Positions 18,054-52,322 of a DNA stretch of 64,000 bases are shown here, piece after piece (position 1 is the stretch's first letter; each line of letters starts with the position of its first letter). The position numbers and the translations under genes are program-made. A model generated the notes under the pieces. That model was not told the DNA's origin and ran no database searches. It was given only the letters and a program-made list of their open reading frames with translations. This stretch comes from Auricularia sp. M13 (lineage: Eukaryota; Basidiomycota; Agaricomycetes; Auriculariales; Auriculariaceae): assembly GCA_037042915.1 (NCBI GenBank), contig CM073193.1, forward strand, positions 806,001 to 870,000. Direction: 5' to 3'.

Positions 18054-19174
18054 CAATGATCCTGCGCGGTTGTGGATCCCATCATTTAGCATGTCTGGGC
18101 GACGCAAGGCGACGCACAGCGTGTGTAATTGCCAATCAGGACATGAGCGATGGCACAGGTGCCTGAGCACGAGACACACTCTCGGGGGAGGATCCATGTC
18201 CAAGTCGGTTCGTTGTCTGCAATTCCTCGGGTTGTGGACAAGTCGGCGGTAGCGCCTCATGCAATACTCATGGCAAGCGCTGCGGCGCTAGATGACATGC
18301 ATAAAGAGCGTGTTACTGTAAAGACGATCGCAAAGCCATGAATGGAATGCGCGGCCGTGCATGACAGCGGACCTGTTTGACATCGTGCCACGCAGTTGCC
18401 AGCGCGCTTAAGCAGATCAGTGCTGTTGACGAGACAACGCACTGACAACGCCCTCGGTGTGAGGGAGTCAACGCAAAGCTCTGTCAAGTCTACGCACGGA
18501 GCGCGCTCGTGCAGGCAGTAGGCAAGAAGAAAGATGCAGATTTAAAGGACAGTCGCCATCCGGAGCAGAACCCAGAAATCCAACCATTGCCGGTTATCGT
18601 TAATCGTGAGATCCATCTGTCGACTCTCAAACTCAATGCCGAAGGCCTCAAACGCCTTCAATAAACCAAAAGCCCAAGGTAAGGACGAGGTTGTAGATAA
18701 AAGTATCATTGTCAAATAAAACTAATAGTATACAAAAAGGCACCAGAAGGCATCCATCAGACAGGCCACAACCCCACGACCGCTGCCTGCAATCCACCGG
18801 AGCAGAAAGCAAAGGACAGTGGTCAGCTTCATCGAGCTCCGCGAGCGGAGCATGTTCTCTGCTAAAGCAGGGTGTGGGCGGTGTCATCGGGTGGATGTGA
18901 AGAATGCGGCACATTTGAGTGCGCAAGACTGCAGTTAGTTTCTATAAATAGATCCTAGCTGAGTATGTTCTAAGGATACAACAGTCGTGGGAGGACGGGT
19001 ATATAAAGGACTGGTCCGTGCCCGCGGACAAAGTCGCGATCGACGGCGGATGCATCACACCGTCTCTAGTCCCTTCGACATTGCCTCTGCTAATCCGAGG
19101 GGACTAACGGCAGAAGGTGCCATTGTAACAACTTATCGTGTCCTTGATAGGCATCGCGAACGACAGTAACAATG

Positions 19175-19820
19175 CCTTGTCTGGGGAAAGGCCCTCCGCT
19201 CAACCTGATCATGACTTCTTCTTCCAAGCCGCCGCTTCCAACCCGTATCCTCGCTGTTCACAATCCGGATACCACGTTCCAGCATCTTCTCCGTGAGGGC
19301 TGGAAGTGGATGCTTGATGAGATCACGTCTGCAACCGCGAGTTCATGGCGGTCAGGACGTAGTTACATGCCACGAGAGTCAGAGCGTACTGTGTTTCTGG
19401 CCAAAGATCCCAATTCGGAATGTGCACAGTTCGCATCGTGGGGAACTTGGAACGGTCCAGCGCGTCGCAAAATGCGGACAATAATCGCATGTTTAGTTCC
19501 TGGTCACGCGACCCGCTGTATCTGCGACCGAGGCTACACATCCTCGTAGTGAGTATGCGTGAAGGAATGCTATAGACTGAGAACACACCAGATTCTTGGA
19601 TATGTGGGGTGCTAAGAGCTGGGGGATGTTCTCCACGAGGTTACACGCTGAGGTAACGGGAGGGAAGACCGTACGTTGCAGAGTTCAACTTGACGACAAG
19701 GCGTCGCTCGCGAACGGCGATTTGCTGGTGGTGGTACATTCAAAATCAGCGTCTTCGACCGACAAAAAGTTGTCCAGAATGGTGGCTAGTGTCTCGTCGG
19801 CTAGCTTATGGGCCATGGCG
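19175..19820 (-). pseudogene. F-box gene remnant with its middle deleted
   Basis: Reading the minus strand, the F-box start (MAHKLADETLATIL, then SKSPFASDALSSS) at about 19816-19690 jumps directly to the C-terminal exons (SRDQELNMRLLSAFCDALD and RTVHIPNWDLWPETQ) at about 19640-19200. The missing middle corresponds to roughly 49440-51280 of the intact copy in the other arm. Confidence 0.82.
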
Positions 19821-20191
19821 ACAAAGCAGGGACGCGCCAACGGGATTCACCGATGACGTGTCAAGTCCGCAACCACCCGGTCCGCAACCCCGAAATTCCC
19901 GTGCCTAGACCATCGCGCAGGTACTTGAGCTAGACAGCGAACCGGCGCTGCAATGACTGTTCGTTTCATTTCGCGCGTCCAGGGGCTGCTGCACTTTCAG
20001 TTCATTGACTCACTCTCGCAGGCGCGACTCGAGCCTCGCAGACTCATCATGGGTGCACCGCCCTTGCAGGCATGCTTCGCGCGAGCTTAATACACGCACC
20101 TTGAACACGAGGGTCAGGCGTGTGCTCCCATGGATGACCGTCTAAACTCCCGGGTTTCTTCATGAACAGAAGCTGGTCCCCACCAATATCC

Positions 20192-21381
20192 ATGTCGCAA
20201 AGAGAGCTTATCGTACCCGCGGCACGCCAGCAGACCATGTCTTCAGCTCTCTCCTCGCGACGTTCAGATCTTGCGGAGTATACATATCGTCGTCTGCAGC
20301 GCGATATCTTGCCGGCGTACGTAGCCGAGAGCCTCTCTCGTGGTCTTGCGACTATCCCACTCTATGCGGAAAAATCGTATGTAGTCACTATCATGGATTG
20401 CACCATATTTACCTCATCCGCTCCTCCTATAGGAAAGATGCCTATGGCGAGTCGGCTGCGATCCTCAGCAAACCTGTGGCGTTTTCTCTAGATGCTCGAT
20501 CGACGCTTAGTCGGTCTTTATGCGTGGCGCATGAGATCCAAACGAAGATACCTGGAATACTTCGCATATTGGAGACTGCTGCAAGAGATGAAAGCGACCA
20601 GCCCGTAGCTCACGCCATCAGTCAGCAGCAATTAGAAAATCTCGCCTGCATGGCCGAAACTACGCGTGATGCCTTCAGTCACCTGCACACTACTGTTGAG
20701 ACGGTACGCATCTGTATCATTGCGCTTGGTGTTTACCTGTCTCAAACGGAAGCAGATATCGCAGGAAATGGCCATGCACCTCCGTCAGACCCCTCTCACA
20801 TTTATTCCACGCTGGACAAGAGCTGCCCGGATTGCCAGCATCTGCGTATCGCTTCCTGCCTTCGCAGCAGCCGTCCTTTCCGCTGTTTGGAATACGACTC
20901 ACCCTATGCTTGCGTTCATAATGGCGCTCATCAGTGCTACAGCAGCGATGTGTGGTGGAATGGCCCCTTGCATTGCCCAATGTTCGTTCTGAAGCCGCTA
21001 GCGAGATCTTTTATTAATCTTCGCGAACACCAGGGTATTGGGAGGCAACCGATAGAAGCCCTCCGCGCGCCGACATACAAGCCGTTCGCATCGAGGCCTT
21101 CCGGTTATGCTATCCAGTCTCGTTGCTCAGGGCGTGGTGGCACAGATTTGCTGGAAATACCGAGCCGCTTGCGAGGTGGACTGAGGAACGCCGCTTGCAG
21201 CATGTGGTGTTGCAACTACATTCCATCGCAGACCATCTAGATCAGTATCTACGGGAAGTACGTAGCATCGACAACAATGCGTATCTCGCTTATGCAGTGA
21301 GAATAGATACAGGGGCTTCTCAGCTCCATCGAAGGAGGTATCGCCAAAGTCGGCGACGGGGCGAATGAGATGGTAGTATAA
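20192..21381 (+). CDS. twin-B, left copy: unknown membrane protein
   Basis: Five exons: 20192-20376, 20433-20703, 20756-20981, 21034-21257, 21313-21381; 324 aa, all phases closing. The N-terminal 150 residues are soluble and helical (ILPAYVAESLSRGLATIP, LDARSTLSRSLCVAHEIQTK). Exon 3 holds two adjacent hydrophobic segments, VSLPAFAAAVLSAVW and MLAFIMALISATAAMCGGM, separated by NTTHP. Exon 4 is amphipathic (VSLLRAWWHRFAGN, HSIADHLDQYLRE). I recognise no family. It converges on twin-A 86 bp away, and the same convergent pair is intact in the other arm. Acceptor use at exon 3 differs slightly from the right copy because the homologous CAAG there has become CAAA. Confidence 0.78.
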
Positions 21382-21467
21382 GCATCACGCTTTGATCAGG
21401 TCTCGCCAAGATGGTGGGGATCTGTATATGGCATCAATATCTCTCGTTTATGGAAAATGCGCACATC

Positions 21468-22364
21468 TTACTTGTCGTGTTCGTTGCGGCTGCGAGGGAA
21501 GCGAACGATGGGTGGCCGTGGATGAGCAAGTTGTAGCTCATTCTGAGAGAAAGGGTCCATGAAGTCGTAATAGGCTTCGCCGAGCTGCTGGCAGGACTGG
21601 TAAAATTGGGCCAATTCCTCGCGGCCGAAGGTGTGACCTGCGCTAGAGAAGAGTCCTACTCTTTTTCTCCAGAACACCTCGATGCGCTCCAGGCTGTCCA
21701 TCATCAGCTCCAAGTCGTCTCTGGTGTCAGCTCCGATTGCAGTAGTCTGCAGGTGCTGGGGAGCCGCTTGTAACGATGCGGACGGTGACGCAAATGTGCC
21801 AAAATTTCGCAGGAAGGCTGCAACGCCAGACTGCGAAGAACGAGAGCGGGCTGCGGACAGCTGCGACAGGGACACGTAGAAAGCATCCCATGCCAGTCGA
21901 ATTTCATCGACAAAATTTCGATTCGTCGAACAACCGCTGATAACCGCTTCGACAATCTCTTGGAAATGTGCGGGGTCGTTGCCGGACAGATCGTTTCGAA
22001 GAGTCGCGCCAGCAGTGTAGACACTCCATGAGATAAGCACTCTCGTGTCCGCAATGATGTTGGAGCATATGTGAGAATATGCATAGATGAGGCGTGCGCG
22101 GATCTCCAGCAGGTGTTGTCGTAAGGGCGTCGTTGCAGCCTCCGTGTCGTCAGCCAGAGCACAGGCTATGTCACGAACAGCCCTAGTGACGCGAGTCGCA
22201 GCGTCTGTAAGATCAACAGTAATCGGCCACAGAGCTCGAAGGTCGAGAGGATCCTCTGCAACGCTCTCCACGAATGTTAGTCGTGGAAACAGCTTAGAAG
22301 CTGACAGCGGCCTTACAGGTGGCATTTCCACTACTGTGACTTCTGTACTTAGTGCGTGTGCCAT
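21468..22364 (-). CDS. twin-A, left copy: unknown helical protein
   Basis: A single exon, 298 aa, starting MAHALSTEV; the frame stays open upstream to 22517 but MAHAL is the first methionine shared with sensible spacing in both copies. The protein is alpha-helical with no signal peptide or membrane segment: LTDAATRVTRAVRDIACALA, RQHLLEIRARLIYAYSHIC, YVSLSQLSAARSRSSQSGVA, LERIEVFWRKRVGLF. It has exactly the same length as the right copy (46785-47681) and about 77% identity by hand alignment. The first 130 residues are the most conserved; residues 190-230 vary most. I recognise no family. Confidence 0.8.
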   Translation of the reverse strand: MAHALSTEVTVVEMPPVRPLSASKLFPRLTFVESVAEDPLDLRALWPITVDLTDAATRVTRAVRDIACALADDTEAATTPLRQHLLEIRARLIYAYSHICSNIIADTRVLISWSVYTAGATLRNDLSGNDPAHFQEIVEAVISGCSTNRNFVDEIRLAWDAFYVSLSQLSAARSRSSQSGVAAFLRNFGTFASPSASLQAAPQHLQTTAIGADTRDDLELMMDSLERIEVFWRKRVGLFSSAGHTFGREELAQFYQSCQQLGEAYYDFMDPFSQNELQLAHPRPPIVRFPRSRNEHDK

Positions 22365-22756
22365 AGTCGTTGGGCTCGCGCGGGCTCCGATGGAGCTGGA
22401 TAGTAGGCAAGAGGTGCCAACATGTCGCGGGATTAGACGATTGCTTCCGAGCGCAAGTGAACCACGCTCCGGCTTCTCGGCGCTACGCGCGGGACCCATG
22501 AGATCGCAAATTCGCATCCCTCAACGCCTGAGAATATCATAAAACCAGAATAAATACTCGGAAAACAATGCAGAATCATCCATTTTCCAAGATCTCCGCA
22601 GCAAGCGATATGAAAAGCGCGGATAGCACACCAAGAACCTAATACGACAATCATTTTCTTGCTAGATACTTACTACTATTGTCAGAATTTATTATCAGAA
22701 CCGATTGATCTTATACTACCATGATATATGGGATACAACGTATGAGAGGATACTTA

Positions 22757-23060
22757 CAGTTAAGCTGCGTCCCTCTTGGAGACGGTGACTGTCATTAAAT
22801 CCCTTGCACAATCGACATCGCCCGCATTGTAAGTTGACTTGGCAAGCGCGCAAATGGCGTCCATAATACGCAGGCTGGCCTCGGACTCGTCACCAGGATA
22901 GCGGGCAAAAAAATGATTGAGCACAAGCCGCCGCCAACACGCGTCGCGAACGCGCCGGCCATCTGGGGAGTCGAGTGCCCGCGGCTCTTGGCGCGTTCCT
23001 CGACGGTCTCCGCGGTGTCCTCTTCCTTAGTCGCGGGTCGACTCCGGGTAGGTGCGCGAA
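22757..23060 (-). pseudogene. 3' fragment of tRNase Z
   Basis: Matches the last third of the intact tRNase Z gene (45820 to 46119), including the [13 protein letters not shown] and [13 protein letters not shown] coding stretches. A change near 22935 disturbs the frame (GGGTTG region). It lacks the metal-binding THTHGDH motif. Confidence 0.85.
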
Positions 23061-23161
23061 TCTCTTTTTGCTCATAGTATCCTGCGACTGTATGGATTAA
23101 CCTTGATATATGAAGGCTTGTCTGGAATATTTGCGTTCAAATATCTGCATTCAAATACCCC

Positions 23162-26100
23162 CTACGTTGTACCGGTCTCGACGCGGGCGATCACGGCACG
23201 AGCCCGCGCCGCTCCACGTTTGTCTTCTATTTCGACAAAGTATCGCAATGCATTCTCAGCTCGATGAAGCGCGAGACGTGCCTGGTCAAGCCTTTCCTCA
23301 AGCCTCGCGGAATGGAGGAGGGCGTTTGCGAGCTGAGGGAGGTAACCGAAGCGATGGAGCGCCACCATTGTTGCATTGAGCAGGTTAGCTGACGAGACGT
23401 CGTCGACTACTTCGGCTAGCCGAGCAAGCGCACAGACAGTGTCGGTGCAGATCCTGAACTGGGCGCGCACGACTGCTGCGAGTATGAAGTATCTGGCGGC
23501 CTCATCCAGTTGACCGTCTCCCTGTTCGATCCTGCCAGCCATGATGCATATTTTCGCCTCGTGCAGTGTCAGGGACTCGGCGGTATCGCTTGGATCCTTC
23601 CCCGCCCTGCAGATTGAGCGTGAAATCATGAGCATTGCCCGGGCTTCGTCGATGTGGTCGCGATACCAAGCCAGCTCGCCGTGCATCCAGGCCACATACG
23701 AACGCACGCGCAAAGCCGTGGGGCCGTGAGTTCCTGCCATAACCTCTGCTTCTCGCACAAGGTCCAGTGCAGCCGTCGTGTCGTTGCGAGCAAGATGCGC
23801 AATGAGCAAGTCGGATAGACAGAAGAAGTCGATCCTGTTATTATTTCTGCGACATAGATCAAGCGACTGCCGCAGCTCCTCTATGGCGAGCGCGTATGAG
23901 CCCCGGTGCACGAACGTTTGTCCGAACGTGAGATGGATCCAGGCCAGGCATCGTACGTCCTGTAAATACTCGCACACAGTCTGCGCCTCCCGTAATTCGG
24001 TTATAGCCTGGCTAACGTGCCCCGCTTCGCCATGGATGACAGCGATCTGGACCATGAGGTCCGCCACAATGTTGTCCGGGCCGGGTTGTATTTCGCCAAG
24101 TATCGCAAGAGCCTCCTCGTAGCACCGAAGTGCATCAGACACGCGTCCAACACGCTCGTACGTGGCCGCCAATGCCCGTTTACAGCGCGCTTCGGTGTCG
24201 CGGTAGCCATGTGCCTTGGCGAGCTCGATGACCCTCGCTGCCTCTGCGATCGCCGCCGACGGTGTCATGTAGTGCATCATGATCATGGATGCTTCGAGGA
24301 TGCGCCAAGGCGCGGCTTCAACGCGCTCGTACATGGCGCGCGCTTCAGTAAGAAGGCGCAGAGGGTCGCCCAGCCTCATAGTAGTATTTCCCATGGTTGT
24401 CGCACAGAGAGTCAATAGATCGCCAGTAAACGAATCGAAGCCGCCAGCCCGCGACACAGAGATAGCAACTGGCAACAGATTCTGAAGAGAGCGCATTCCG
24501 CCATTGGAATACAGAACACCGAGATTTACCGTAGCCTTCAGAGCATTGGTTTTATCAGCGACCTGTCGAAGAGAATAAATAATAAGAAATTCGAGGTTGT
24601 CGAGTTCAGGAAGTATCGCCGCCATGGAGGTCGAAATAGACGCGAGAGCATTGCTGTCGATGCACATGCGCGGAAGGTCGAAGAAATGTTTGTAAAGCTG
24701 CGCCGATTCCGCTTGTGTAGGAGCATGGTTGGCCAGCATGAACTCTCGGATGGGCGCGAGAACGCGGAGACGCTGGTCGGCCGTTTGGTAGACGAGGGCG
24801 GTCTGCAGCAGCACGGAAACGGACGGTTGATAATCCGTCGGCCCCCATACGGCGAGGTCGGTGTGCATGGCACCAACGGGGAGGAGTGACAGAAGACTGA
24901 GTAAGCGCTCGGCCGCGGGACGCTGTCGCATGCGCGGTGAATCAAGGGACGTTGCGATGGAGACGTCGAGCGCGTTCAGACGCTGCGTCCCGTCCCCTCT
25001 AGTCAGCATCGCAGTTTTCATATCGTACCACCGGCCCAGAAGCGTCGCCAGGGTTTCATATTGCGCCTGGTTCGCCATGAGAACGAGCGCCAATGGAACG
25101 TTCTCCATGTAACTGAGGATCTGGACGAGCATCGCGGTGGCCTCGCAAGAGTCTGGAATATCAGATATAGACATGAAGGTCTGCTTCGCAGCGTCGTCTG
25201 GTAGAGGGTTCAGCGGCGGAAGGAACGGCCTGCTCCAAGGGACACCCTGCGGCCGCTCTGCTCCCCGCATAGTAACGACGAGAGCCACGGTCCCGAGCCC
25301 TACGACCGACTGTAGCAGCTGCTCAGCGTTGGCGCGCGAGTCCGCCGCCTCCCATGCAGACTCGAAGTTGTCCAGGACGAGCAATGTCAGTGCTCTCGCG
25401 AGGGAGTGAAATAGTTCCTGCTGCAGCGCCGCGTGATTCTGGCCGCTGTAGCCGAATGCGCCGGCGATGATGCCCAAACAGTCTGCCTTGTATTCCGCGG
25501 CGTCGCACGCCACGAAGTAGCGGCGCTGCTCAAAGTGGTTTAAAACGCGCGGATGGTGCAGTGCGGCGAGCGCGAGCGACGTCTTGCCTATGCCGGGACC
25601 TCCCAGAATAGCAACGTGGCCGAGATTAGGAGCTGTGACAGCAGAGACGAGGGCCTCGAGCTCAGCTGCTCGTCCAAATAACTGAGGCAGCGGAGGCACC
25701 GGCGGAGTGCCGCGAGTCGAAGGTGATGCCGACTCAGCTGGCTGGATCTGGTAATCCAGCTCGGCGACCGTGGGAGATCTCTGCTCAGTCGCCGTGAGCG
25801 TCTCGCTCAGTTTGAGGTTTAGCTGGATCTGCGCACACGCGTAATTAGTGCTTACTGGAGACTATGGATGTTGATAAACGTACTTTCGTAAGGTCAAACG
25901 CATCGTGGAGATTGTCCCACATGCCAATGAGCTTCTCTTTGTCCCGTTGCTGGTACATAACCTGCGATATGTAGCTGCGTCGCGCAAGCGCTTCCAGGCC
26001 GGATTGTGTGTCAGCGATGAGGCTGCACGCTGAGCTCAGTTCTACGCGCATAGACGGTGCAGTGGAGCTGCGCACCGTTTTAGTTCGCCCATAAAAGGAA

Positions 26101-27600: not shown

Positions 27601-27716
27601 CCCATATACGAGTCCAATCCACACACATTCCATTATCCCTCTTCCTCTCTCTCTAAACCCTTTCTTATTTTCTCGCTGCATGCACCAGTCGCCCTACGAG
27701 AAGTCGCCCAGGCACT

Positions 27717-28327: not shown

Positions 28328-28427
28328 TATTAATCTAATACACCGTTGCTAGTAAGCATCTTCGGTAAATGATTAAAACATTCGTCACGCTTTAACGTCA
28401 TATATGGAGCGGTGGCGCTTTGGACGA

Positions 28428-30070: not shown

Positions 30071-30126
30071 TTGCGAATATGATACAATGCGCGTGAATAT
30101 CTTCTATGACTTTATGGGACACTGGG

Positions 30127-36239: not shown

Positions 36240-36914
36240 AAGCGGGAATGCGCCATTAGAAGGCGACGCGGATGCCATAGCTGCGGCCATGGAGAGCGGG
36301 AAGAGAAGCGCGGCATCGGTCTTTGAATTGCGACAACACGCTCTTCCTCGCTCCGCTGCCTGCCCGGAATGGCTGCCACCGCTTCTGATGTGCGCGACGC
36401 GCCGTCGCTACCCGCGGCTCTACATATGCTTCCCTGGCGTCCCGGAAGTCTTAGGGCGGCGCGAGAGCCCCAGGGCGCTCCCCCACGAACTCTTCTCGCT
36501 CATCGCAAACGCCGCGCCAAGTCTTGCGCCCACGCTAGCTCTGCAGAGATTTGAGTCAAGGCCCGACATTCACTGCTGAGATACGCGCAGGATTCTAAAT
36601 AAGGATATCACAGCACTGTATCCGCCGCAAAATATTTCGACTATTGAACTTCCACTTCCCCATTCCGCGCAATTTTGAGACTGGGTGTCTGCACTAGCAA
36701 AGAATTTGGCCTTTCCCTTGCATACTTGCAATATTCCAGGGAACTTCTCTTTCACCACCTTTTCCAATTCTCAGCCTTTCCATCTTGTCTTCCCGAGCCT
36801 CGACAATCAATGGTCTTACAAGCCAATGAGAATGTGTGCATTCCCATCTTGACATCCATTTCTCACAACACTAGTATTCAGCAGTCTCCCGAGTTTGAAT
36901 TGATGGCACATACT
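36240..36914. other. intergenic, no gene seen
   Basis: Only short unsupported frames between the THOC7 start and the end of the left BTB-like gene. Confidence 0.45.
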
Positions 36915-37995: not shown

Positions 37996-38599
37996 GTGGG
38001 CCCTGGGGACGCACGCACTGGATCAGAGATAGAGGTTTTCTGCGACAATTCTGGCTTTCTGACTGCCAGCTTTTATGCATGGCAGCCTACATCGGCGAGC
38101 TCGGATGCAGGATTCGACGGGTTCGGTCGGATCTTCCGTCGGGGCTTCCATGAGGATAGTACGACGTCCCGCCCTCAACGAAAGGCGGACCGTCCTCAGA
38201 ATTTCCTGGAAGCGAGAGCGGGTTGGATTCACTCCACACTACACAAACATCTGTGTTGTGGAGCTCGAGTTACCGGCTCGGACCAAGATCACGAGAAGCA
38301 GGGCTGCTGAAACGTGCGCAGGACAGAGAGCCAGCTCATTGCGAAGGAGAGGTAGAAGGATTGATATCACAGCAATCGAGACCGAGACAAAGTCAGCAAC
38401 TCGAGGAATCAAGCCGGTCGACCAGACGGTCAAACGCGTAGAAATCCAACGTGTCGAAGAAGTTATATCGGTAAAGACAAGGATCAAGCAGTGTCCTAGT
38501 TGCGGGCGGCGAGGAGCGAGGGCGAAGGAAGTAGCCATCCCTTGCGAAATGCGCCAACCGAGATGTGGTGTACAGGAGGCTGCGGAGCAGAGACTTGCT

Positions 38600-39100
38600 T
38601 CCAAAACAAGATAGATTGCATGCCTAGAGCGCGCCGTCCGAGGGCTGCACATACAGGCGCATGGCAAGCGCGTCCGCGCCGTCCGCATCTGGAATCGAAT
38701 GTATGGCGATCAGAAGCAAGACGGTGCGCCCCGCACGGGAACGAGCTCACAGGATCCCGTCTCGGTCTCGTGCACGCCAAAGCCCGGAGTGCCGCGTTAA
38801 GGGCAGATGGCGGCCCTGTTGAATTTACATACGTGCAGAGAGACCTACGCTGCGCGGTGCACGTTCGCCATTGCCTGTTCTGCAAGTGAGAGAGCCTCCG
38901 GCTCAGTAGCAGCAACCTGGCGCTCGCGCTGGCAGTGCGCAATACGCACGTCTCAACCTTGAGCCGCTTCGCGAGGCCGAATCGCCGGTATGGCCGCAGG
39001 ACGGAGCGCGACACGGAGGTGACATGCCCATGCGGCCCGCCCTAGGCCTTCTGCGCGTCGTCGTTATCATCGTCTCTGCGCATCGCGCTGGCAGTGGGCA
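38600..39100 (-). pseudogene. decayed copy of NAA10, 3' half
   Basis: Minus-strand matches to exons 5-7 of the intact gene: [20 protein letters not shown] then AKRL, the start of the next exon (NRQWRTCTAQR in a shifted frame against [10 protein letters not shown]), and CGRRGRACHAPVC-like out-of-frame remains of [13 protein letters not shown]. Several stops and frame changes; the N-terminal exons are missing. Confidence 0.82.
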
Positions 39101-39348: not shown

Positions 39349-40173
39349 ATGAACATACGACAAGCACGAGTGCGCAGCAGCATTGCCCATTTCAAATGAC
39401 AAGTTGAACCAATGCACTACAAGCCAGAAGACCTGCTTGGCATGCAGGCGTGCAATCTCCAGAATCTGCCTGGTGCGCGCACGCGCCTGCCGCGCAATCA
39501 TCTGCTTTGCTGATGCTGACGGTCTATACTCTAGAGAATTACACGATGAAGTACTGTGCGCAGCCATGCCATACTGGGATCGACCCAAAGTGAACGGCGA
39601 ATGTTCCTTGCCCAGACTTCTACCATCTGCTCTCGTGGCCGGCGCTCTCGTACGTCGCGGAGGACGGCAAGGGGCGGATCGTGGGCTATATTCTGGCGAA
39701 GATGTGGGTACCGCCATCAATTTTAAGCACAATGTCCTCTGGTTGACGCGGCCGGGATGCGCAGGGACGACGACAGCGACGAAGCGCAGAAAGGCGAACC
39801 GCACGGACATGTCACGTCCATCTCCGTCCTGCGGCCCTACCGGCGGTTGGGCCTCGCCAAGCGGCTCATGGTGCAGAGTCGTGAGTCGGGTCTGCGTGCG
39901 CTCGCAAGGCTGTCCGTGTTGACTTGGATTGGCAGAACAAGCTATGGCCGACGTGCACCGCGCGGCGTACGTCTCGCTACATGTGCGCAAGTCCAACAGG
40001 GCCGCCATCGGGCTGTACCGCGACACGCTCGGCTTCGGCGTGCACGACATCGAGAAGGGTTACTGTATGTGCAGCGCCGACGGTCCACCGTTTGCTGATC
40101 GCTTTCAGATGCGGACGGCGAGGACGCGCTGGCCATGCGGCTGTATCTGCAGCCCTCGGACGGCGCCTTGTAG
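39349..40173 (+). CDS. NAA10: NatA catalytic subunit, N-alpha-acetyltransferase
   Basis: Seven exons: 39349-39369, 39424-39472, 39535-39555, 39616-39703, 39765-39880, 39936-40064, 40109-40173; 162 aa, all phases closing. The start [15 protein letters not shown] is the hallmark NAA10 N-terminus, followed by [19 protein letters not shown]. The acetyl-CoA motif is [11 protein letters not shown] (R/Q-x-x-G-x-G/A). Then come [20 protein letters not shown] and [23 protein letters not shown]10 acetylates nascent protein N-termini at the ribosome together with NAA15. Exon 3 is only 21 nt. The usual long acidic C-terminal tail is absent; the protein ends at PSDGAL. Confidence 0.93.
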
Positions 40174-40826
40174 GAGCCAAATCTGTTTTGTCTTGCTTTT
40201 GAGCTTTTGCTCTCATGTACTTACCATCCAAGTCACTGTTTTCGCAATGGATATCAAATCCCTTCACCCTCGCCGCAACAGCTGAAGCTGTATGATGCAG
40301 CTGCTGACGATCTCTTGACTGGGACGATGCTACTCGAAGCTCCGTCGACCACAGCGCCGCTGCTTTATACCGTCTTTGATGACGTGATGCTGTTGTGCCA
40401 CTTTTCTTACTCGCCATGCATGAGTTCGCTGCTTTGTCGCGCGGTCGGCTTGGATGGCCTGATTCCTCGAGTTGCTGGATCTAAACGCTTGCGACCTCAG
40501 CTGCTCTCTTTCGCACTTGGGCTGATTTTCATGACCATATTTCCCGGCTTTCCGGTCAGGATGTCCTTCAGACCATGGCAGCTCTGGCCCGTTTGCTTTC
40601 GACCTTGGATAATAATCGGCTTCGTCTCGCAGCCAGAGTTTCTGACTCTGAGAGTCACGACCTTCGGCACTTTGGAAATACCGGTCCGCATCGGTAGGCT
40701 GGTGCTGAGACGACACTCGGAGCCCCCGCTTGTCGTACCAGCATGGCCATTAAGAGGTAAGCACTGCTCGCAGTCTGCGCACCGTCTACCAGAATGTGCT
40801 GCGGACGGAGCTTTGAGCGAAACCTA

Positions 40827-41557
40827 CAGTCATGGACCGGTCCTTGACACAGCACCGGTCCTTGACACAATCACTTCCCGAAGCTGCAATTCAGCCTCAA
40901 ATATTATGGCTTTAACTCCCCAATGTATACACTAGCTAGGGCTATGATAATGCGAAGTTGCAGAGGATTTGGACTTCAAATGCCTGGGCAATAAGCGAAG
41001 CATTCACAAATGTTCGGTCATTACCGACGGGCAAGCTTTCCCCTGCGTCTTTCCTCAGGACTCAGCACGATGTCTCATTTCAGAACCACTGTATCAGTAA
41101 GTATACACATATATCTACCTCTGAAAAAAGGAAGGTAGCCAAAATCTCCATTCCTTGGTCGTCAGAAGTGGATAGCAAGAAAGCCGATGTTTGCTGTTGG
41201 GAACATAACTCAAAATAACCGACTTTCTTGACTGCAGATAATAGAATATAACTATTTTTGACGTTTTCATCAAGTCCCATGCCATTGGGATGCACGAATC
41301 TCGTTGAAGGGCTGCTGTGGGTGCGGGCAAGCACACTGAATGGGCCTGTGTCAAGGAGCCGGGTTTGGCCGTTTTGCACCCGTTCAGAGAATCGTGCTCG
41401 TTCTCACCTTAAACTAATTCCCCCGACCTGAAACCTTTTGAGGGCGTAGCCAAGACACATCTTTAGCGGAATGCATAGAAATTTCGCGAGGGGAAGTAAA
41501 ATACAAAGCCCCGTGATGGAAATTCAAAGTTGTGTGTCAAGGACCGGTCCATGACTG
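40827..41557. mobile_element. Tc1/mariner-type MITE with perfect 25-bp inverted repeats
   Basis: The element begins CAGTCATGGACCGGTCCTTG and ends with the exact reverse complement, CAAGGACCGGTCCATGACTG. The perfect inverted repeat extends 25 bp. Both sides carry TA (40825-40826 and 41558-41559), the target duplication of Tc1/mariner/pogo elements. A second copy of the ACCGGTCCTTGACACA word follows the 5' repeat. No transposase frame. It is absent from the matching place in the left arm (near 38150), so it arrived after the duplication. Confidence 0.88.
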
Positions 41558-41743
41558 TATCTATCGCTGAAGAGAACGACGTCGTACGAGTACCTACGGA
41601 AGATCCGACCGAGCACGTCGGAGGGTCTTGCCTCCGAGCCCTGCCGATCCAGGCCGCCATACATGAGCCAAGCAAAGAGAAACAATTACACACTGCAGAG
41701 GAAACCTCGGTTTCTGCTCTCGGGCGCGCGCCCCTAGGCCATC

Positions 41744-42779
41744 ATGACTTCCCTGGTATATCGATTTGCTCGATAACGCCGTTCATAGCAGCTCATCCGT
41801 CATGCAGCTCCCGGAAACGCCTATGGTCTCAGCCATGTTTAGCGCAGATGCTCGATACAGCTCAGCCAACAACGCGCCGCCCGACCAAACCATCCTCTCA
41901 GCAGATGACATGCTCTTTTTTGTGCACACGGCGGTCATCCGCCGCACTTCGGCAAACAGCCTCGCGGGTCTCCTAGCTCAGCCCAGTCCCACCCCAATTC
42001 AAGTACCCGAGGACTCTCAGACTCTCACCATACTTCTCTGCAAGGTCTACTCCCTCCCCCACCCAGAAATATACGACTGGTCGGCACTGGCACGCGCGGC
42101 GGGCGCCGTCGCGCGATACGGCCTACCGCCGCCCGCTGCCGACGAAGCACTGCACGCGGCGCTGCTCGCGCACGTCGGTCGGCCGGGCGGCGCGCGGGAC
42201 GTCTTCGGCCTCGCGGCGCACCTCGGGCTGGAGCCGCTGGCGGTGGCGGCGAGCGCGCATTTGCTGTCGCTCGACCTCAGCACGATCGACGACGTGTGGG
42301 CCATCCATATCGGCCCCGTGTACCTCCGCCGGCTGTTCTTCCTGCACCTCGGCCGCGTCGAGGCGCTCAGGCGCATCCTCGGCGCGCCCCCGCCGCCCGC
42401 GCACGCCGCGACGCCTGTGTGCGGCACCGCTGAGCGCGAGCGCGACGTCTTGGTGCCGTGGATGCTCGCCTGTGCGCAGCTGGTGGCCAGCGCGCGGTGC
42501 GTCCGACCTCCGTGGTCTGCTCTCAGCCGTCGCTCACTGTTCTTCCACTCGGATGTGGCTGAAAGGCCAGATACTTCAAGTTCTCAGATCGAGACCGCGC
42601 TCAACCCGATTGCGTACCGCTGTCCATGCGTTGAGTGCGGACACGCGGTGGCCAAGCGCATCCAGGCCGTGCTACTGGAATGGTCAGCGATTAAGGTCTG
42701 TGCACACGTGGGTTCTCAGGCTGTTACCAAACTGAAGCCTCGGGCAGAGAACAATTTGAGACTTAGAGGTACTCGATAA
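41744..42779 (+). CDS. BTB/POZ-like protein, right copy
   Basis: Three exons: 41744-41755, 41808-42695, 42738-42779; 313 aa, phases closing. Same structure as the left copy, including a 12-nt first exon (MTSL) and a 42-nt last intron of equal length. BTB-like part: LSADDMLFFVHTAVIRRTSA, NSLAGLL, PEDSQTLTILLCKVYSLPHP. The C-terminal half has LDLSTIDDVWAIHIGPVYLR and RCPCVECGHAVAKRIQAVLL. The C-terminal exon is shorter than in the left copy and ends NNLRLRGTR. Third codon positions in the middle are strongly GC-rich. Confidence 0.8.
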
Positions 42780-43743
42780 TCCACACTCGGCTCCGAATCC
42801 CTCCTTCGCTGATCGGCAGTTCAATAAGCACAGGCAGTTCGCAGGTATTCTGCAATGCGTACACGAAGGAACACGAGAGTATGTGTCATCAACGCATACT
42901 GAATCCTTAGCGTCGTGAGATGTGAACGGTTAGACAGGAATCGAGTGATTTTCAACGGACGAAGCACCACCGATCTTCCAAATCCGGGAAGGCACTGTGG
43001 AGAGGATGAGGCTTAGAAAGACGATGAAAGAGAATTGTGCCGGTCGCTAAACGGGGGGACTTTTCAAGTTTACAGGTCGGATTCTTTGATAGTAGAAACC
43101 AACCAATCCTCCAACTTGCGCGGAGCGGGGAAGTGGAAGTTTAATCAGAGAACACATGTACAATGTCTTGCCCTTTCGTCTCCGACATTCAATGCATGAC
43201 GGCGAAGGGCATACGTTTCGGAAGATTCGGGTGACGCCGCGGACCAACTGTCGACTATACGATCGTGCGCATGTCAAAAATATGCTGTATGCTTCACAGC
43301 TGTCCACAAAAACATCAGCATTGCATGCAGATTTCTCGGCTTGTCGCAGTGATCTTCGCTGACTACTCGGATACTCTGTTTTCGTTGAAGGCGAGTTCAG
43401 AACGACTAGTACCCGTACCGCGGAGGTCGAGACTGCCGCTCGGTCGCCCTTCCCACCGCCTTGCGATAGCAATCGTGCAAAGGAGCGGACATGAAGACGA
43501 CTGCTTTGAGGAATTGGTCCAAGATGCCATCTGAACCTTGGCGAAGTCAATCCGGAGATCCAGTTTCCTGCCATGTGCTACCCCGAATCCGCCCGAGCAA
43601 CACACCACCCTGTCCTGGATTCTGCACAACATGCACGTAAAGGCGGGGACGAAGACATGTATACTTAGCTGATCAGCGGGGAGAATTCGGATGAGTGTTG
43701 ATTCCTTTAGTTGGGAGCGAATGACAAGTGGGACGAAAAGTTA
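42780..43743. other. no recognisable gene
   Basis: Overlapping minor frames only, the longest about 175 codons on the minus strand at 43047-43574, without motif or splice support. Confidence 0.4.
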
Positions 43744-44872: not shown

Positions 44873-46119
44873 ATGTCGTCGCTCAGCTCCATAGAACTGA
44901 CATTCCTGGGTACGGCCTCTGCCCAGCCGTCTTCGACTCGCAACCACTCGTCACTTGCTCTGAAACTCTCCGGTGACACATGGCTATTTGACTGTGGCGA
45001 GGCTACCCAGCACCAAATCCAGCGCTCTCGCGATGTCCGCATGGGCCGTATTAGCAAAGTTTTCATTACCCACACGCACGGCGACCATATCTTTGGGCTT
45101 GCACCCGTCATGGCAGCCATTCTGAACGGCGCAGGAGGCACTGCAGGTGGCGCAGAGGACGATCGGGTCGCTGCAGCTGAAGGCGCGCCGGTGAGTCACT
45201 CCAGATCTGACCATGAAACTCTGTTGTTCATGCGCTGTTATAGCCGTTCGAGATCTACGGACCCTTGGGCACGCGCGCTTATGTCCGTGCATCGCTCAAC
45301 TTCACGCACACGCTGCTCGAAGGGCGCTACGTCGTGCACGAGCTGCGATTCCCACACGACCCGCCGAGCGGCACGGACGCAGGGTCGCTCCTCCCCGCGC
45401 ACGTCTGCGAGCTGCCCGACGGGCGCGACATCCCGCAGGCCGCGGACGGCACATGGCCAGACATCTTCGTGTCGCCGTTGCTGCGCGTGTCCGCGGCGCC
45501 GCTGTTGCACAGCGTGCCGTGCGTCGGCTACGTCGTGCACGAGCAGCCGGTGCCGGGCAAGATGGAGCCGGCGCTCTATACGCCACACATCGCGCGCAAC
45601 GCGACAGCCTTGCGCGCAGCCGGCATCAAACAGCCCATGTCACTTCTCGCGCGCGTTCAAGTCGGCGAGCACGTCGAGTTGCCCGACGGCACGCTTCTAA
45701 CACCACCCGCGCGTCGCCCGGGACGCAAGATTGTCGTACTTGGCGACACGTACGACCCGGCGCCCATTGCGGCGCTCGCCCAGGACGCGGACCTGCTCGT
45801 GCACGAGGCGACCAACGCGCACCTACCCGGAGTCGACCCCGCGACTAAGGAAGAGGACACCGCGGAGACCGTCGAGGAACGCGCCAAGAGCCGCGGGCAC
45901 TCGACGCCCCAGATGGCCGGCGCGTTCGCGACGCGTGTTGGCGCACGGCGGCTCGTGCTCAATCATTTTTCTGCCCGCTATCCTGGTGACGAGTCCGAGG
46001 CCAGCCTGCGTATTATGAACGCCATTTGCGCGCTTGCAAAGTCAACGTACAATGCGGGCGAAGTCGTTTGCGCGAGGGATTTAATGACAGTCACGGTTCC
46101 CAAGAGGGACGCAGCTTAA
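44873..46119 (+). CDS. tRNase Z, short form (metallo-beta-lactamase fold)
   Basis: Two exons: 44873-45190 and 45244-46119; 397 aa, phase closing. The N-terminus has the tRNase Z pattern [20 protein letters not shown] and [20 protein letters not shown]. The zinc motif is [11 protein letters not shown]. Later motifs are [41 protein letters not shown] and VLNHFSARY, which supply the remaining metal and active-site residues. The length fits the short (ELAC1-like) type rather than the 800-aa long type. The enzyme removes 3' trailers from tRNA precursors. The last third is duplicated, inverted, at 22757-23060. Confidence 0.92.
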
Positions 46120-46248
46120 GCGTACGTTGTCTCACATACGTTTCAGCACATATATCATGGCAGTATAGTATGAATGAATTCTGAGTATAAACTTCTGACA
46201 AAAGTGACTGTCTAAAGTTCTTGAGAGTTCTTCAAGTTAGTGTACTAG

Positions 46249-46527
46249 CACTGGGCCCGGCATTGAGTGGTGGTCGAGAGTTGTTAGAGATTATCAGCAT
46301 GATTTTCTGCAAGAATCCATGAGTATCCATTGAAGGTGGCACAATACAAATCTCGGTGGCACTCTCTCACCCATTACAAATGATATTCCTTCAATAGGTG
46401 AATAGTCTGAATGGTGGTGCCGAGATTTGTTGACAACTACCCTCAAATTATTGTCGTACATTCTTGCAGAAACTCATGCTAATAATCTCTTAGAAATGAC
46501 AACCACTTCACTATCCCGGGTCCAGTG
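46249..46527. mobile_element. MITE-like element with long imperfect inverted repeats
   Basis: Starts CACTGGGCCCGG and ends CCGGGTCCAGTG. Inverted similarity continues inward for about 70 bp, including GATTATCAGCATGA against GATTATTAGCATGA and the shared TTTCTGCAAGAAT. A shorter inverted pair, AATCTCGGTGGCAC / GTGCCGAGATT, lies in the middle. Flanking TA is clear on the right and near the left end. It is absent from the left arm. Confidence 0.68.
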
Positions 46528-46784
46528 TAGGCTTTTATTATCGGTTGCTATCCAGTTGTTAGAAGATGGATGATTCTGCATGGATTTGTCCGTATCCTCA
46601 TGTGGTATTATGGTGTAAGGCATGGGGGGAGGTAAAATGCAATCCAGTAGGCCGCCCGGCGCATAGCGCCAGGCTGTCGGAACGTGGTTCACTTGCGCTC
46701 GGAAGCATTCGTCTAATCCCGCGACATGTTGGCACCTCTTGCCTACTATCCAGCTCCATCGGAGCACGCGCGAACCCAACGACT

Positions 46785-47681
46785 ATGGCACACGCACTAA
46801 GTACAGAAGTTTCAGTAGTGGAACTGCCACCTGTAAGGCTGCTGTCAGCTTCTAAGCTGTTTCCACGACTAACATTCGTGGAGAGCGTTGCAGAGGATCC
46901 TCTCGACCTTCGAGCTCTGTGGCCAATTACTGTTGATCTTACCGACGCTGCGACTCGCGTTACCAAGGCCGTTCACGACATAGCCTGTGCTCTGGCTGAC
47001 GACACGGAGACTGTTGCGACGCCGTTACGACAGCAGCTGCTGGAAATTCGCGCACGACTCACCTATGCGTATTCTGGAATCTGTTCCAACATCATTGCGA
47101 ACACCAGAGTTCTCATTTCATGGAGTGTCTATACTGCTGGCGCTACTCTTCGGGACGATCCTTCGAGCGACGACCCCGCCCATTTTCGAGAGATTGTGGA
47201 AGCAGTTATCAGCGCCTGCTCGACAAGTCGAGTAGTTGTGGATGAGACTCGGCAGGCATGGGATGCTTTCTATGTGTCCTTGTCACAATTATCTTCCACC
47301 CGCTCTCGTTCTTCGCAATCTGGCGTTGCCGCATTCCTGCGTAATTTTGGCACATTCACAACACCGATCACGTCATCACAGGCGAATTCCCAGCAATTTC
47401 GCACTGCAGAAATTGGAGCTGGCACTGGCGACGAATTTGGGCGGTTAATAGTTAGCCTGGAGCGCATCGAGGCGTTCTGGAGAAAAAGAGTGGAACTCTT
47501 TTCTGGCACGGGTCGCACTTTCGGTCGCGAAGAACTGGCTCGCTTCTACCAGTCCTGCCAGCACCTTGGAGATGCCTATCTCGACTTCACAGACCCATTT
47601 ACACAACACGAACTCGACCTCGCCCATCCTCAGCCGCCCATTATTCGCTCCCCTCGTACTCACAGCAAATTTGACAAGTAA
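46785..47681 (+). CDS. twin-A, right copy: unknown helical protein
   Basis: A single exon of 298 aa beginning MAHALSTEVSVVELPPVRLL, the same length as the left copy. Predicted all-helical: DLTDAATRVTKAVHDIACAL, QLLEIRARLTYAYSGICSNI, RQAWDAFYVSLSQLSSTRSR, RFYQSCQHLGDAYLDF. No signal peptide, membrane segment or known motif. The frame is open upstream to 46566, and the 5' flank (RGSLALGS-RLIPRHVG) is itself conserved between copies, so an earlier start is possible. It converges on twin-B, with stops about 90 bp apart. Retention of a full frame in both arms, while neighbouring duplicated genes decayed, suggests the product is used. Confidence 0.8.
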   Translation: MAHALSTEVSVVELPPVRLLSASKLFPRLTFVESVAEDPLDLRALWPITVDLTDAATRVTKAVHDIACALADDTETVATPLRQQLLEIRARLTYAYSGICSNIIANTRVLISWSVYTAGATLRDDPSSDDPAHFREIVEAVISACSTSRVVVDETRQAWDAFYVSLSQLSSTRSRSSQSGVAAFLRNFGTFTTPITSSQANSQQFRTAEIGAGTGDEFGRLIVSLERIEAFWRKRVELFSGTGRTFGREELARFYQSCQHLGDAYLDFTDPFTQHELDLAHPQPPIIRSPRTHSKFDK

Positions 47682-47770
47682 GCTTTGTAAATTGCGCACA
47701 AGGGCAGACGATATTGACGGGGATACATAGATCAGAGACGTCCTGGAGAGACCTGATTTAACTCTGACGT

Positions 47771-48954
47771 TCAGACCATGTTCGAGTTGTCGCAAGCTGT
47801 AGCGTTTTCTCCTTCCACGGAATTGAGAATGACCTGTACCTGTTTTTCGGCGCATCAGGATGCCGTGTAACATGCAAAATGTCACTCACTTCTCGTGAAT
47901 ACTGATTGAGAAGTTGTGCAATAGATTCCAGTTCGCACGTCACGTTGGTGATGCGGTGGGTTGGGGTCCACAGTGTCAGCGTATAAAACATGTAAGCTAG
48001 CTTCTGCCACCACTTCAGAAGCAAGGAGAGCGGGTAAGACAACCGGTAGGTCTCCACGCGCACGGCCTGTATGTCGGCGCGCGGGGGGGCTTTCCTAGTT
48101 GTCTCCCAGTACCCTAACGATCGAAAGTCAGGCACAGCTGTCGATCTTGATGGAGGATTGTAAACGGACATTGGGCAATGCAGGGTCCCATTCCGCCGCA
48201 CATCGCGGCGGCGGCGCTGACGATCGCCATTATGAAGGCAAGCATGGGGTGCGTGGTGTTCCAGGCAGCAGAAAGGACAGCAGCCGCGAATGTCGGGAGC
48301 GAGACGCAGATACTGCCGATCCGGACAGCCTTTATCCAGTTAGGAACGGTTGTAATGGAGGCTTCGCGGACGTGTGTCGACATCTCTTGAGAAATCTGCA
48401 CTTGCTTGAGATGCGGATAACAGAATGGTTGCATTACATACCGCCGCTGCAACGCCATACAGCTGCTTAAAGGCATCGCGAGTGATTTGGACACTACAAG
48501 CGAGCTTGTCCAGCTGTTCCTGACTGCTACGAGCCTGGGACGGGGTGATATCCTCCCCTGCGACGTCTAGTATACGAAGAAGTCGACCGATCTTGGTCTG
48601 AATCTCATCTGCAACAAATAACGACCGCCTGAGCGTCGATCGCGCATCTAGCGAAAATGCGACGGGTCTATTCAGGATAGAACCCGAGCCATGGTCGACG
48701 CATTGCCTATAAGACATAGTGAATGGTTCATAGACTGTAAGACTACGGCATTGCATAACATACGATTTCTCCTCATAGAGCGGGATGATCGCAAGACCAC
48801 GGGATAGACTTTCGGCTACGTGTGCCGGCAGAATTTGAGCTTGCAGATGAGGCAAATCCACAAAGTAAGAGAGAGACCCTTCCCTCGTCCCAAGAGCTAC
48901 CGATATATTCTGGGGTCGATATGTAGCGACGATGAGCTCCCTAGACCGAGACAT
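47771..48954 (-). CDS. twin-B, right copy: unknown membrane protein
   Basis: Five exons: 48764-48954, 48442-48706, 48170-48395, 47890-48113, 47771-47839; 324 aa, phases closing. Exon borders match the left copy one for one, and exons 3, 4 and 5 have exactly equal lengths (226, 224 and 69 nt). The membrane part is VSLPTFAAAVLSAAW, NTTHP and MLAFIMAIVSAAAAMCGG, followed by GPCIAQW and an aromatic helix (SLLLKWWQKLAYMFYTLTLW). A possible glycosylation or turn motif, NTTHP, between the hydrophobic segments is identical in both. Function unknown. Convergent with twin-A. Confidence 0.8.
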
Positions 48955-49313
48955 GGATTGAGAGTAGGGGAGATTCTGCTTACGATGAGACCCGGGGATT
49001 TAGACAGCTCATCCTTTGAGGTACACGCCTAATGCGCGTGTTGAAAGTTGAAGACGCGTGTATCAAGCCTGTACGAAGCATGCATCCAGGGCCCGGGCGG
49101 TGTTCTCAGCTCTGTGCTCCGATTATTCTGCGAGAGACAGTCAAAGGTTGGGGCGGGCCAACGCACGTCTTTTAATATAAATATGGGCACGCTGTCCCTC
49201 CAGGGTCGTGATATAGGATGGTCTGTGCGCGGGGAATTCGGCGTTGCGGACCGGGATGTTGCGGACTTGCACGTCATCGGTAAATCCCGTATACGCGTCC
49301 CTTCTTTGTCGCC

Positions 49314-51779
49314 ATGGCCCGCAAGCTAGCCGACGAGACACTAGCCGCGATTCTGGCCAACTTTCTGTCTGTTGATGAAGCCGATTTTGCATGCACGACC
49401 GCCAGCAAGTCGCCGTTTGCGAGCGACACTTTGTCGTCGTCGACCGTATTGCTCGTGTGCAAGCGCTGGTTGCGCGTCGCGACCCCCTTGCTCTACGGAA
49501 CGGTTATTCTGCGCTCTCCGGCCCAATCTAGTGCTCTAGCCGCCGTGCTCAAGCGACAGCCCACATTCGGAACCTATATTCGGAAGGTCCGCGTCGAAGG
49601 AGGTGTCGGCGCGTCAATCTGCAAAATCTTCAAAGCAGCGCCAAACATCACAGACTTGTGCTTAACTCTGGATCTGTACGCCAGCGATAACGTCACGCAC
49701 ATGTACAAGGCTTTATTTGACAGCGTCGCTCCCCAGCGCCTGGTGCTATGCAGTTCCTGGGGCTACTATCTGAACGGCAATAAGCCTATGAATGCAGCTC
49801 TCGATGCGCTTGAGGTCTGCATCTCGCAGTGGCCTTCACTGGTGCGCAACTCGTCCTTCTTCTAGTACATGTGCCCTGACGAAGACCCAGCGCGTCTTAA
49901 CGCTTGCAGACAACCTCGTGACAAAGTCTTCGCGACTCCACGACGCGGTATGCAAGGCGCAGCACCTGGAGCTTATCGATTTCCCTCAGCCGTGGAGTAC
50001 CGACAGGGGTAGATTTCTCTCGCGGTTGGCAGAACGCTGCTCAGCCCCAGTAATTCGTGTGGGTTGGTCGTCCCAGGGCCACGACCTGATCGGGCGACCG
50101 AAGGATTTGTTTTCCGAGCTATCTCCTGTGGCTCAGAAGAAAGTGCAGTTCGCGGAACCCATTGTGAAGAAGTGAGTCTGGTCGGTGGCTTCTCGAGTTA
50201 CCGATGCAATAACGTATCTCAGGGCCGCACTTTCGGTCGTCGCTCTTGCGTCCAACCCATCGTACATGCCCCTGTCCAATGTACCAGCAGAGACTCGTCG
50301 GATTATCTGGACCCGCATTCTCGACATCGTGATCGTGCACACGAAGGGAATCGACTTCAACAAATTTATAACAGAAGACAATTTCGATCCTCTAGAGGAC
50401 GATGACGAAGATCTCGCTGCGGGTGCTCGGGCATTGGCAACGCTTCCACGTGGTGCAATTCTTCAGTGCATGTCCGTTTGCAAGGAATGGAAGGTGCGTC
50501 GGATCGTCAGAGTGTGCAGCGATCGAGCTCACCACAATCTATATTCCGCTAGGACATTGCTACGGGCCTTTCCTGCCGATATTTGCGTCTCACGAATCAC
50601 CAGAAGGTCCAAAGCTTCATGAAGTGGGTAATATCGCGCGAGGATGCATCGGACCTCGTGAGCTTGGCTCGCACACTCGACCTTGGCAGCGATCGCGCTG
50701 CGGAGGTTGAGAGCATCTGCGACCAGTCGTTCCTCGGCCATTTCATCAACCTCCGGTCATTCAACAGCGGGGACGTGCCCATCTCCTCGACAGCTTTGGG
50801 GACGCTCTCCATGGCTCACCTCCGCACGCTCAAAATCCGTTCTTCTACTCCCGGGACGTACATCCTTCCGCCGTTCCCGTCGCTGCGCAAACTGGAGTGG
50901 ACTATCGAGATTTTGCCTCAGACATTCGAGGCCTCGTCCACGGATGCTAGTCCGTCCCTGCCCCTGCTCGAGACGCTCTCTGTCCGGGGCACGGGTGCGA
51001 GCAAGTTGCTTGCCAGCCTGAGCAAGTTTAGGTCCGTGCGTCTTCGGCAAAAGGTTCGCACCCTGACTGCCTGTCTCAGGTTACCAGCAATTACGTTGCT
51101 CGATTTCAACGACTCCGTTAACTCTCCGGAAGACCTGCGGGTATTTTGCGTCAGGAATGGGCAGAGTATCCGCACAGTGCGCAACCTTGGAACCTCGAAC
51201 CATCTGACTACTCTACTGCCCACATGCCCGGCTTTGAAAAGCATTGAACTCAGCAACGTACACGTATGTCTTCCACACTGTTACCTCAGCATGTGGCTTA
51301 CATTCATGGGAAGTTGCCACGCCTCGTGGAGAACATCCTCCAGCTCTCCACACCCCACACGGCGCTAGAAGAGATTACATATCCAAGAATCTGGTGTGTT
51401 CTCAGTCTATAGCATTCCTTCACGCATACTCACGACGAGGACGAGTAGCCTCGGTCGCAGATACAACGGGTCGCGTGGCCAGGAACTAGACATGCGATTA
51501 TTGTCCGCATTTTGCGACACGCTGGACCGTTCCAAGTTCCCCGCGATGCGAACCGTGCATATTATGAAATGGGATCTTTGGCCAGAAACACAGTACGCTC
51601 TGACTCTCCTGGCATGTAACACGTCCTAACCGCCATGAACTCGCGGTTGCAGACGTGACCTCATGAAGCATCCACTTCCGGCGCTCGCGGAGAAGATGCT
51701 GGAACGTGGTATCCGGATTGTGAATAGCGAGGGTACGGGTTGGAAGCCGCGGCTTGGAATCACCAAGAAGAAGTCATAA
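49314..51779 (+). CDS. F-box protein, intact copy
   Basis: Eight exons: 49314-49841, 49891-50171, 50223-50493, 50553-51031, 51080-51263, 51314-51393, 51449-51592, 51653-51779; 697 aa, all phases closing. The N-terminal F-box-like segment is LADETLAAILANFLSVDEAD followed by VLLVCKRWLRVATPLLYGTV. A second VCKEWK unit follows near residue 350. The rest is leucine-rich and repeat-like (LPLLETLSVRGTGASKLLAS, SLRKLEWTIEIL), as in SCF substrate adaptors. Members of this family are numerous in agaricomycetes. It would recruit substrates to an SCF ubiquitin ligase; substrates are unknown. A truncated inverted relic lies at 19.2-19.8 kb and a disrupted direct paralogue follows at 52.8 kb. Confidence 0.85.
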
Positions 51780-52322
51780 CTGAGCGGAGCGCCTTTCCCC
51801 AAATATGGCATTGTTACAGTCGTTATGCCTATCAAGGCGAGCAGTACTGTACAGCACATGAATGTACAGTATATGTAGCTACAACATCACCTTCCGTCAC
51901 ATACAATGGACTCTTCACCCGTAACGCGGAAGGACTGGGTGCTATCATCTTGTGTCGTTAGTCGCACTCAAATTCGCAGCGGAAATGTCGAAGAGACCAG
52001 AGACGGAAGGTGTGGTACGTCCGCCGTCGGTCGCGACTTTTGCCTCGGGCACGGACCACCCCTCTATATACCCGTCCTCCCGCGAACTGGGATTCCTTAG
52101 AACATACTCAGCTAGGATCTATTTATAGAAACTAACTGCAGTCTTGCGCACTCAAACGTGCCGCATTCTTCTCATCCACTCGATGACACCGCCCACACCC
52201 TGCTTTAGCAGAGAACATGCTCCGCTCGCGGAGCTCGATGAAGCTGACCACTGTCCTTTGCTTTCTGCTCTGGTGGATTGCAGGCAGCGGTCGTGGGGTT
52301 GTGGCTTGTCTGATGGATGCCT

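What the first reader, a model, noticed from the sequence alone, without database searches (positions are those of the whole stretch)
18747..52322. Large inverted segmental duplication bracketing 23 kb
Segments 18747-23060 and 45820-52322 carry the same genes in mirror order: F-box, twin-B, twin-A, tRNase Z. The right arm has complete end genes; the left has a tRNase Z fragment and a gutted F-box gene, so the right is probably the source. The 23-kb interval between the arms could invert by recombination between them, which would make strains polymorphic for gene order.
Basis: partly seen in the sequence, partly recalled or inferred. Interest (0 to 1): 0.85.

Follow-up and report, generated by a model that had tools for sequence, protein, structure and literature searches.

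The report
Inverted duplication with an older core
A stretch of four genes was copied backwards about 23 kb away in a probably fungal chromosome, and the two inner genes of the copies differ far more than the broken genes at the edges, so the copies have a mixed history and carry two old versions of one gene pair.

Summary
The inverted duplication is real: 18748-23058 (left) matches 45816-52322 (right), collinear and in reverse orientation. The right arm lies in a complete-looking setting (ELAC1-like tRNase Z, F-box-like gene). The left has a frameshifted tRNase Z tail and a gutted F-box-like gene, so the left is the copy.

The outermost blocks are 96% and 98% identical and stop abruptly, although the left genes there are broken. 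The core, about 65% identical, holds the 3' part of gene A and all of gene B. Models of A and B are open in both arms. B has dS about 1.4 and dN/dS 0.23, and its introns are no more alike than random DNA. So core and ends differ in age: two old A-B lineages sit between recently shared ends. Capture of a divergent haplotype (my favourite), core replacement, or gene conversion of the ends could explain this; I could not separate them firmly.

Flipping of the middle was not testable: no genome or relative was at hand, and the longest exact run shared by the arms is 90 nt. A and B have no significant family match in the libraries searched.

The parts
18748..23058 (-). left arm (derived copy), about 4.3 kb
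   Evidence: abrupt loss of similarity on both sides (42% outside 18748, 32% outside 23058)
45816..52322 (+). right arm (parental setting), about 6.5 kb
44873..46119 (+). short-form tRNase Z (ELAC1-like), two exons; its last 304 bases lie in the right arm
22760..23058 (-). tRNase Z tail, broken (two frame-disrupting gaps, no 5' part)
46785..47681 (+). gene A, right, 298 aa, single exon as modelled
21468..22364 (-). gene A, left, 298 aa, 78% identical protein
47771..48954 (-). gene B, right, 324 aa, five exons modelled, two adjacent hydrophobic segments
20192..21381 (+). gene B, left, 326 aa, five exons at matching positions, 58% identical protein
49314..51779 (+). F-box-like gene F1 (end exon placed by eye; not every intron modelled)
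19205..19816 (-). gutted F-box-like remnant: 5' and 3' ends kept, about 1.9 kb of the right-hand sequence missing
46683..47152 (+). high-identity island (91.7%) over the 5' part of A, inside the diverged core
47357..49236 (.). diverged core (64.5%): A 3' end, B, and B upstream spacer

Best explanation
A segment running from the tail of tRNase Z through A and B to just past an F-box-like gene was copied in inverted orientation to a site about 23 kb away, beside an nSTAND-TPR gene. The copy (left) broke tRNase Z and lost most of the F-box-like gene, but both A and B stayed open and selectively constrained. SHOWN: the two A-B copies are much older relative to each other than the ends of the arms. 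INFERRED: the copied segment came from, or later exchanged with, a haplotype carrying a different old A-B lineage. One genome now holds two old A-B types, while the flanks look recent. Recombination at the edges of the core, including one tract over the 5' part of A, made the mosaic.
For: Five collinear inverted matches. Segmentation: ends 0.957 (n=299) and 0.978 (n=229) against 0.323 and 0.423 just outside; core 0.645 (n=1855); two-state log-likelihood -2277 against -2466 for one state. B: dS 1.41, dN 0.32; A: dS 0.54, dN 0.13, with dS 0.05 in the first 50 codons and 0.49-1.83 in the later blocks. Four B introns: identical at 27/56, 25/46, 27/52 and 23/49 sites, against a mean of 0.48 (maximum 0.62) for 40 random 52-base pairs. 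Selection on protein cannot by itself raise intron and synonymous divergence. B is open in both arms through four introns at matching places. Differences in the broken pieces lean to synonymous: 8 of 13 in the tRNase Z tail and 11 of 19 in the F-box 5' remnant. Together P=0.02 against a null where the left was dead from birth and the right fully constrained, hinting that both lineages diverged while functional. F1-F2 is an old tandem pair (dS about 2), so the right outer border looks original.
Against: The haplotype step is inferred from one sequence. Several separate high blocks also fit repeated gene conversion between the arms. P=0.02 is modest: each piece alone gives 0.08-0.10, and the 3' F-box remnant was not codon-tested. 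The A 5' island by four-fold sites reaches 37 of 5000 shuffles, so it is not overwhelming, and its Fisher test (P=0.0014) used a cut chosen after seeing the data. The high blocks differ among themselves (0.90-0.98), so not all are one age.
Confidence: 0.5

Rival explanations
1. Old inverted duplication, perhaps one event that also made the inner NAA10 repeat. Ectopic gene conversion between the arms keeps the ends and the 5' part of A alike, while the rest of A-B escaped or was protected by selection.
For: Several separate high blocks, one inside the core. The inner inverted repeat 36643-39087/39753-43145 is concentric in gene order and also has its broken copy on the left. Conversion can stop exactly where homology ends.
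Against: Both outer borders jump straight to 96-98%, so conversion would have to reach both borders. No copy of MIX23 or of the tRNase Z 5' part was found on the left, so one event needs large later losses. Flanks as diverged as B introns could hardly seed conversion unless it was continuous.
Confidence: 0.33
2. Recent simple duplication, after which one A-B core was overwritten from a third, divergent A-B copy elsewhere in the genome.
For: Abrupt recent ends with an old core.
Against: No third copy showed in the window (blastp among ORFs of 60 aa or more). The genome was not available.
Confidence: 0.1
3. Assembly artefact: a second haplotype of a dikaryon joined in reverse.
For: Flank identity of 90-98% would suit alleles, and tRNase Z stops abruptly at the border.
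Against: The left tRNase Z tail has two frame-disrupting gaps and the F-box-like gene lacks about 1.9 kb. A 4.3-kb piece would need misjoins at both ends. The right arm alone carries a MITE-like insert (absent from the left in the alignment), which alleles could also differ by.
Confidence: 0.05
4. One reading: uniform duplication whose arms flip the 23-kb middle.
For: Inverted arms exist, with exact runs up to 90 nt.
Against: The arms are only 76% identical over aligned sites (which includes about 190 flanking sites). There are no data on orientation.
Confidence: 0.1

Closest known systems
Inverted segmental duplication with a mosaic of conserved and diverged blocks (gene-conversion mosaics)
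   Same: Inverted arms, uneven identity, broken genes at the copy's edges.
   Different: Here the coding core is the diverged part and the dead edges are the conserved part. Conversion itself is not shown.
het-B locus of Podospora anserina (PMC10890737; passages seen)
   Same: Two tightly linked genes in divergent haplotypes bounded by conserved flanks.
   Different: het-B is allelic, uses HET/lectin and PII-like proteins and was tested genetically. A and B show no Pfam match above cut-off, and no alleles were seen here.
Narrow-footprint balanced het genes of Aspergillus fumigatus (PMC11138114; abstract and outline seen)
   Same: Old divergence confined to the genes and several hundred bases around them.
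   Different: Population evidence exists there; here there is one sequence with two copies in one genome.
Inversions formed through staggered breaks with inverted duplications (PMC5080602, PMC12368964; search listing only)
   Same: Inverted duplicates bracket a segment.
   Different: That model, as I recall it, makes one border of each arm new. Here both borders of the right arm look original.

Membership tests
Segmental duplication (inverted) | Collinear multi-gene similarity in reverse orientation | tested here: met
Segmental duplication (inverted) | Copy distinguishable from source by truncated genes | tested here: met
   tRNase Z tail only on the left, with two gaps
Recombining inverted repeat that flips the middle | Long near-identical arms | tested here: not met
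   longest exact run 90 nt, 76% overall
Recombining inverted repeat that flips the middle | Two orientations in strains or reads | not testable with these tools
   no genome held
Gene-conversion mosaic | Blocks of clearly different synonymous divergence within one gene | tested here: met
   A: 37/5000 shuffles; dS 0.05 in the first 50 codons, 0.49-1.83 after. The block pattern is met; whether conversion caused it is not shown
RIP-mutated duplication | Directional C-to-T excess in CpA context | tested here: not met
   T in right 138 vs left 136; A in right 151 vs left 151; no CpA excess evident
Balanced allorecognition locus | Old alleles in populations, trans-species | not testable with these tools
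   one sequence only
Homeodomain or pheromone-receptor mating locus | HD or STE3 domain in the diverged genes | tested here: not met
   A and B have no Pfam match above cut-off at E<=5

The most novel reading that the evidence does not exclude
A-B is an undescribed two-gene recognition or killer cassette of a mushroom-type fungus. It would exist as ancient alternative types between tRNase Z and F-box genes, with an all-helical soluble partner A and a partner B bearing a membrane hairpin. This genome would hold two types at once through an inverted copy, the way some self-fertile fungi carry both mating types.
Probability: 0.07. Interest if true: 0.8.

Novelty: new member of a known kind. Interest (0 to 1): 0.42.

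Why it matters
If the core is an old allelic lineage, A-B becomes a concrete candidate for long-kept polymorphism. One of the papers seen (PMC8229728, passages) says the mechanisms of somatic incompatibility in basidiomycetes remain completely unknown. If instead conversion homogenises the ends, the locus is a natural test of how selection shields paralogs from conversion. Either way, the duplication should not be dated from its overall identity.

Tried and rejected
RIP: no directional transition excess. tRNAs or Rfam families at the borders: none in the window. Target-site duplication around the left arm: none seen by eye. Microhomology at the F-box deletion: nothing convincing by eye. Staggered-break inversion: disfavoured, because both right-arm borders look original (inference). 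Accelerated protein evolution as the cause of the diverged core: rejected, since introns and synonymous sites are diverged too. Structure of A: AlphaFold2 mean pLDDT 38.8, helical, not usable for a fold search, so none was run. Family searches for A and B: Pfam at E<=5 gave only a sub-threshold MgtE match to B-left (E=0.17). NCBIfam at E<=1 gave only a sub-threshold M20 peptidase match to A-left (E=0.094). PADLOC was run for right A and right B only (plus the nSTAND gene), at E<=0.01: none. PHROGs was not searched. PDB by sequence gave nothing below E=0.48 for A-right, the first B-right ORF and the B alignment. Viral contigs for A and B, and prokaryote contigs for B only, gave no relative. The idea of a xenorhabdolysin-like binary pore former is a lead recalled from memory; a paper search for it in basidiomycetes found 0 papers. 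Paper searches on inverted duplications and conversion in fungi gave listings from which I read nothing further.

Full report
What is there. Self-comparison of the window shows five collinear reverse-strand matches joining 18748-23058 to 45816-52322. From the centre outwards both arms read tRNase Z, A, B, F-box-like gene, with A and B on opposite strands and tail to tail. The right tRNase Z is complete as modelled and is ELAC1-like (PDB match E=1.1e-21). The left has only its last part, minus 1 and 4 bases. The F-box-like gene is gutted on the left: about 125 coding bases at the 5' end and the 3' end remain. The F-box name itself is weakly supported (E=0.088 on the tandem sister gene F2).

Which arm is the copy. 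The right tRNase Z runs through the inner border of the right arm, and no trace of its 5' part or of MIX23 was found in 18000-39500. F1 continues into a tandem sister F2 with dS about 2 over 182 codons, so the outer right border looks original as well. The left arm lies about 100 bases beyond the stop of an nSTAND-TPR gene. I read the left as the inserted copy; no target-site duplication was seen by eye.

The mosaic. A two-state segmentation of the arm alignment gives right-arm blocks 45816-46119 at 0.957, 46120-46682 at 0.669, 46683-47152 at 0.917, 47153-47298 at 0.753, 47299-47356 at 0.931, 47357-49236 at 0.645, 49237-51868 at 0.902, 51869-52093 at 0.784 and 52094-52322 at 0.978. Just outside, identity is 0.323 and 0.423. 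The high and low identity values used by the model were set by me, not fitted. The one-state log-likelihood is -2466 and the two-state path -2277.

The core is old, not merely fast. B has a five-exon model in both arms with introns at matching positions and no stop. The proteins are 58% identical. dS is 1.41 and dN 0.32, giving a ratio of 0.23. The four introns agree at 27/56, 25/46, 27/52 and 23/49 positions; forty random pairs of 52-mers from the window, aligned in much the same way, gave a mean of 0.48 and a maximum of 0.62. A is 78% identical with dS 0.54 overall, 0.05 in its first 50 codons and 0.49 to 1.83 in the later blocks. At four-fold sites A has 41 differences in 133, with a 23-site stretch free of differences at codons 11-45; 37 of 5000 shuffles match this. 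B has 60 in 106 and no such stretch (2723 of 5000). Selection on protein sequence would not diverge introns and silent sites, so the core has an older split than the ends, or the ends were made alike later.

Two ways to get there. In the first, the copied segment came from, or exchanged with, a haplotype with another old A-B lineage. Borders that jump directly to 96-98% identity fit this. So does the lean of differences in the now broken pieces towards silent changes: 8 of 13 in the tRNase Z tail and 11 of 19 in the F-box 5' remnant. With the right copy assumed fully constrained and the left dead from birth, P is 0.099, 0.085 and 0.021 for the tail, the remnant and both together. This is a hint, not proof, and the 3' F-box remnant was not codon-tested. 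In the second, the whole duplication is old and conversion has kept the ends alike; several separate high blocks fit that. The bases just after the tRNase Z stop differ at 21 of 85 sites against 13 of 299 in the tail, so a boundary of history lies close to the stop codon in either case.

The inner repeat. A second inverted repeat, 36643-39087 against 39753-43145, lies inside the middle. It carries NAA10 (the PDB match on the right copy is to ard1, E=2e-10; the left is a fragment by eye) and a gene X with 77% identical aligned protein, which had no Pfam match. X has dS 0.54. X looks BTB-like to me by eye only. Whether the two repeats stem from one event is open. The absence of MIX23 and of the tRNase Z 5' part on the left speaks for two events or large losses.

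What A and B might do. B has two adjacent hydrophobic stretches near residues 175-221; A has none. The model of A is low-confidence but helical (pLDDT 38.8). No significant family match was found in Pfam or NCBIfam for both copies, nor in PADLOC for the right copies. A two-part membrane-active system is therefore a lead recalled from known binary pore formers, not a result. Passages of PMC10890737 describe a linked gene pair in divergent haplotypes with conserved flanks, and the abstract of PMC11138114 describes balanced divergence limited to several hundred bases around het genes; these are analogies.

Flipping. The arms have 14 exact shared runs of 30 or more bases, the longest 90. That allows exchange but gives no sign that it inverts the middle. 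No genome is held for the window, and no relatives were found in the scans made. The organism is not identified; that it is a fungus, probably a basidiomycete, is my inference from short introns (46-57 bases), gene content and G+C.

Verdict. A real inverted segmental duplication, correctly spotted and placed. Its main interest is the reversed age pattern, with an old functional core between recent dead ends. Flipping remains a guess.

Noticed in passing
36643-39087 and 39753-43145: A second, older inverted repeat inside the middle, with NAA10 (left copy a fragment) and gene X (77% identical protein).
   Followed up: partly
46249-46527: MITE-like insert with 108-base imperfect terminal inverted repeats (72%), in the right arm only.
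   Followed up: partly
52790-about 54900: F2, an old tandem sister of F1 (exon 1 dS about 2).
   Followed up: partly
23162-25699: nSTAND-TPR gene directly beside the left arm.
   Followed up: no
5711-5882: Perfect 85-base tandem duplication close to the end of an ankyrin-repeat frame.
   Followed up: no
12215-12447 and 16678-16872: Direct repeat pair, 72% identical.
   Followed up: no
48954-47771: B carries two neighbouring hydrophobic stretches, like a membrane hairpin.
   Followed up: partly
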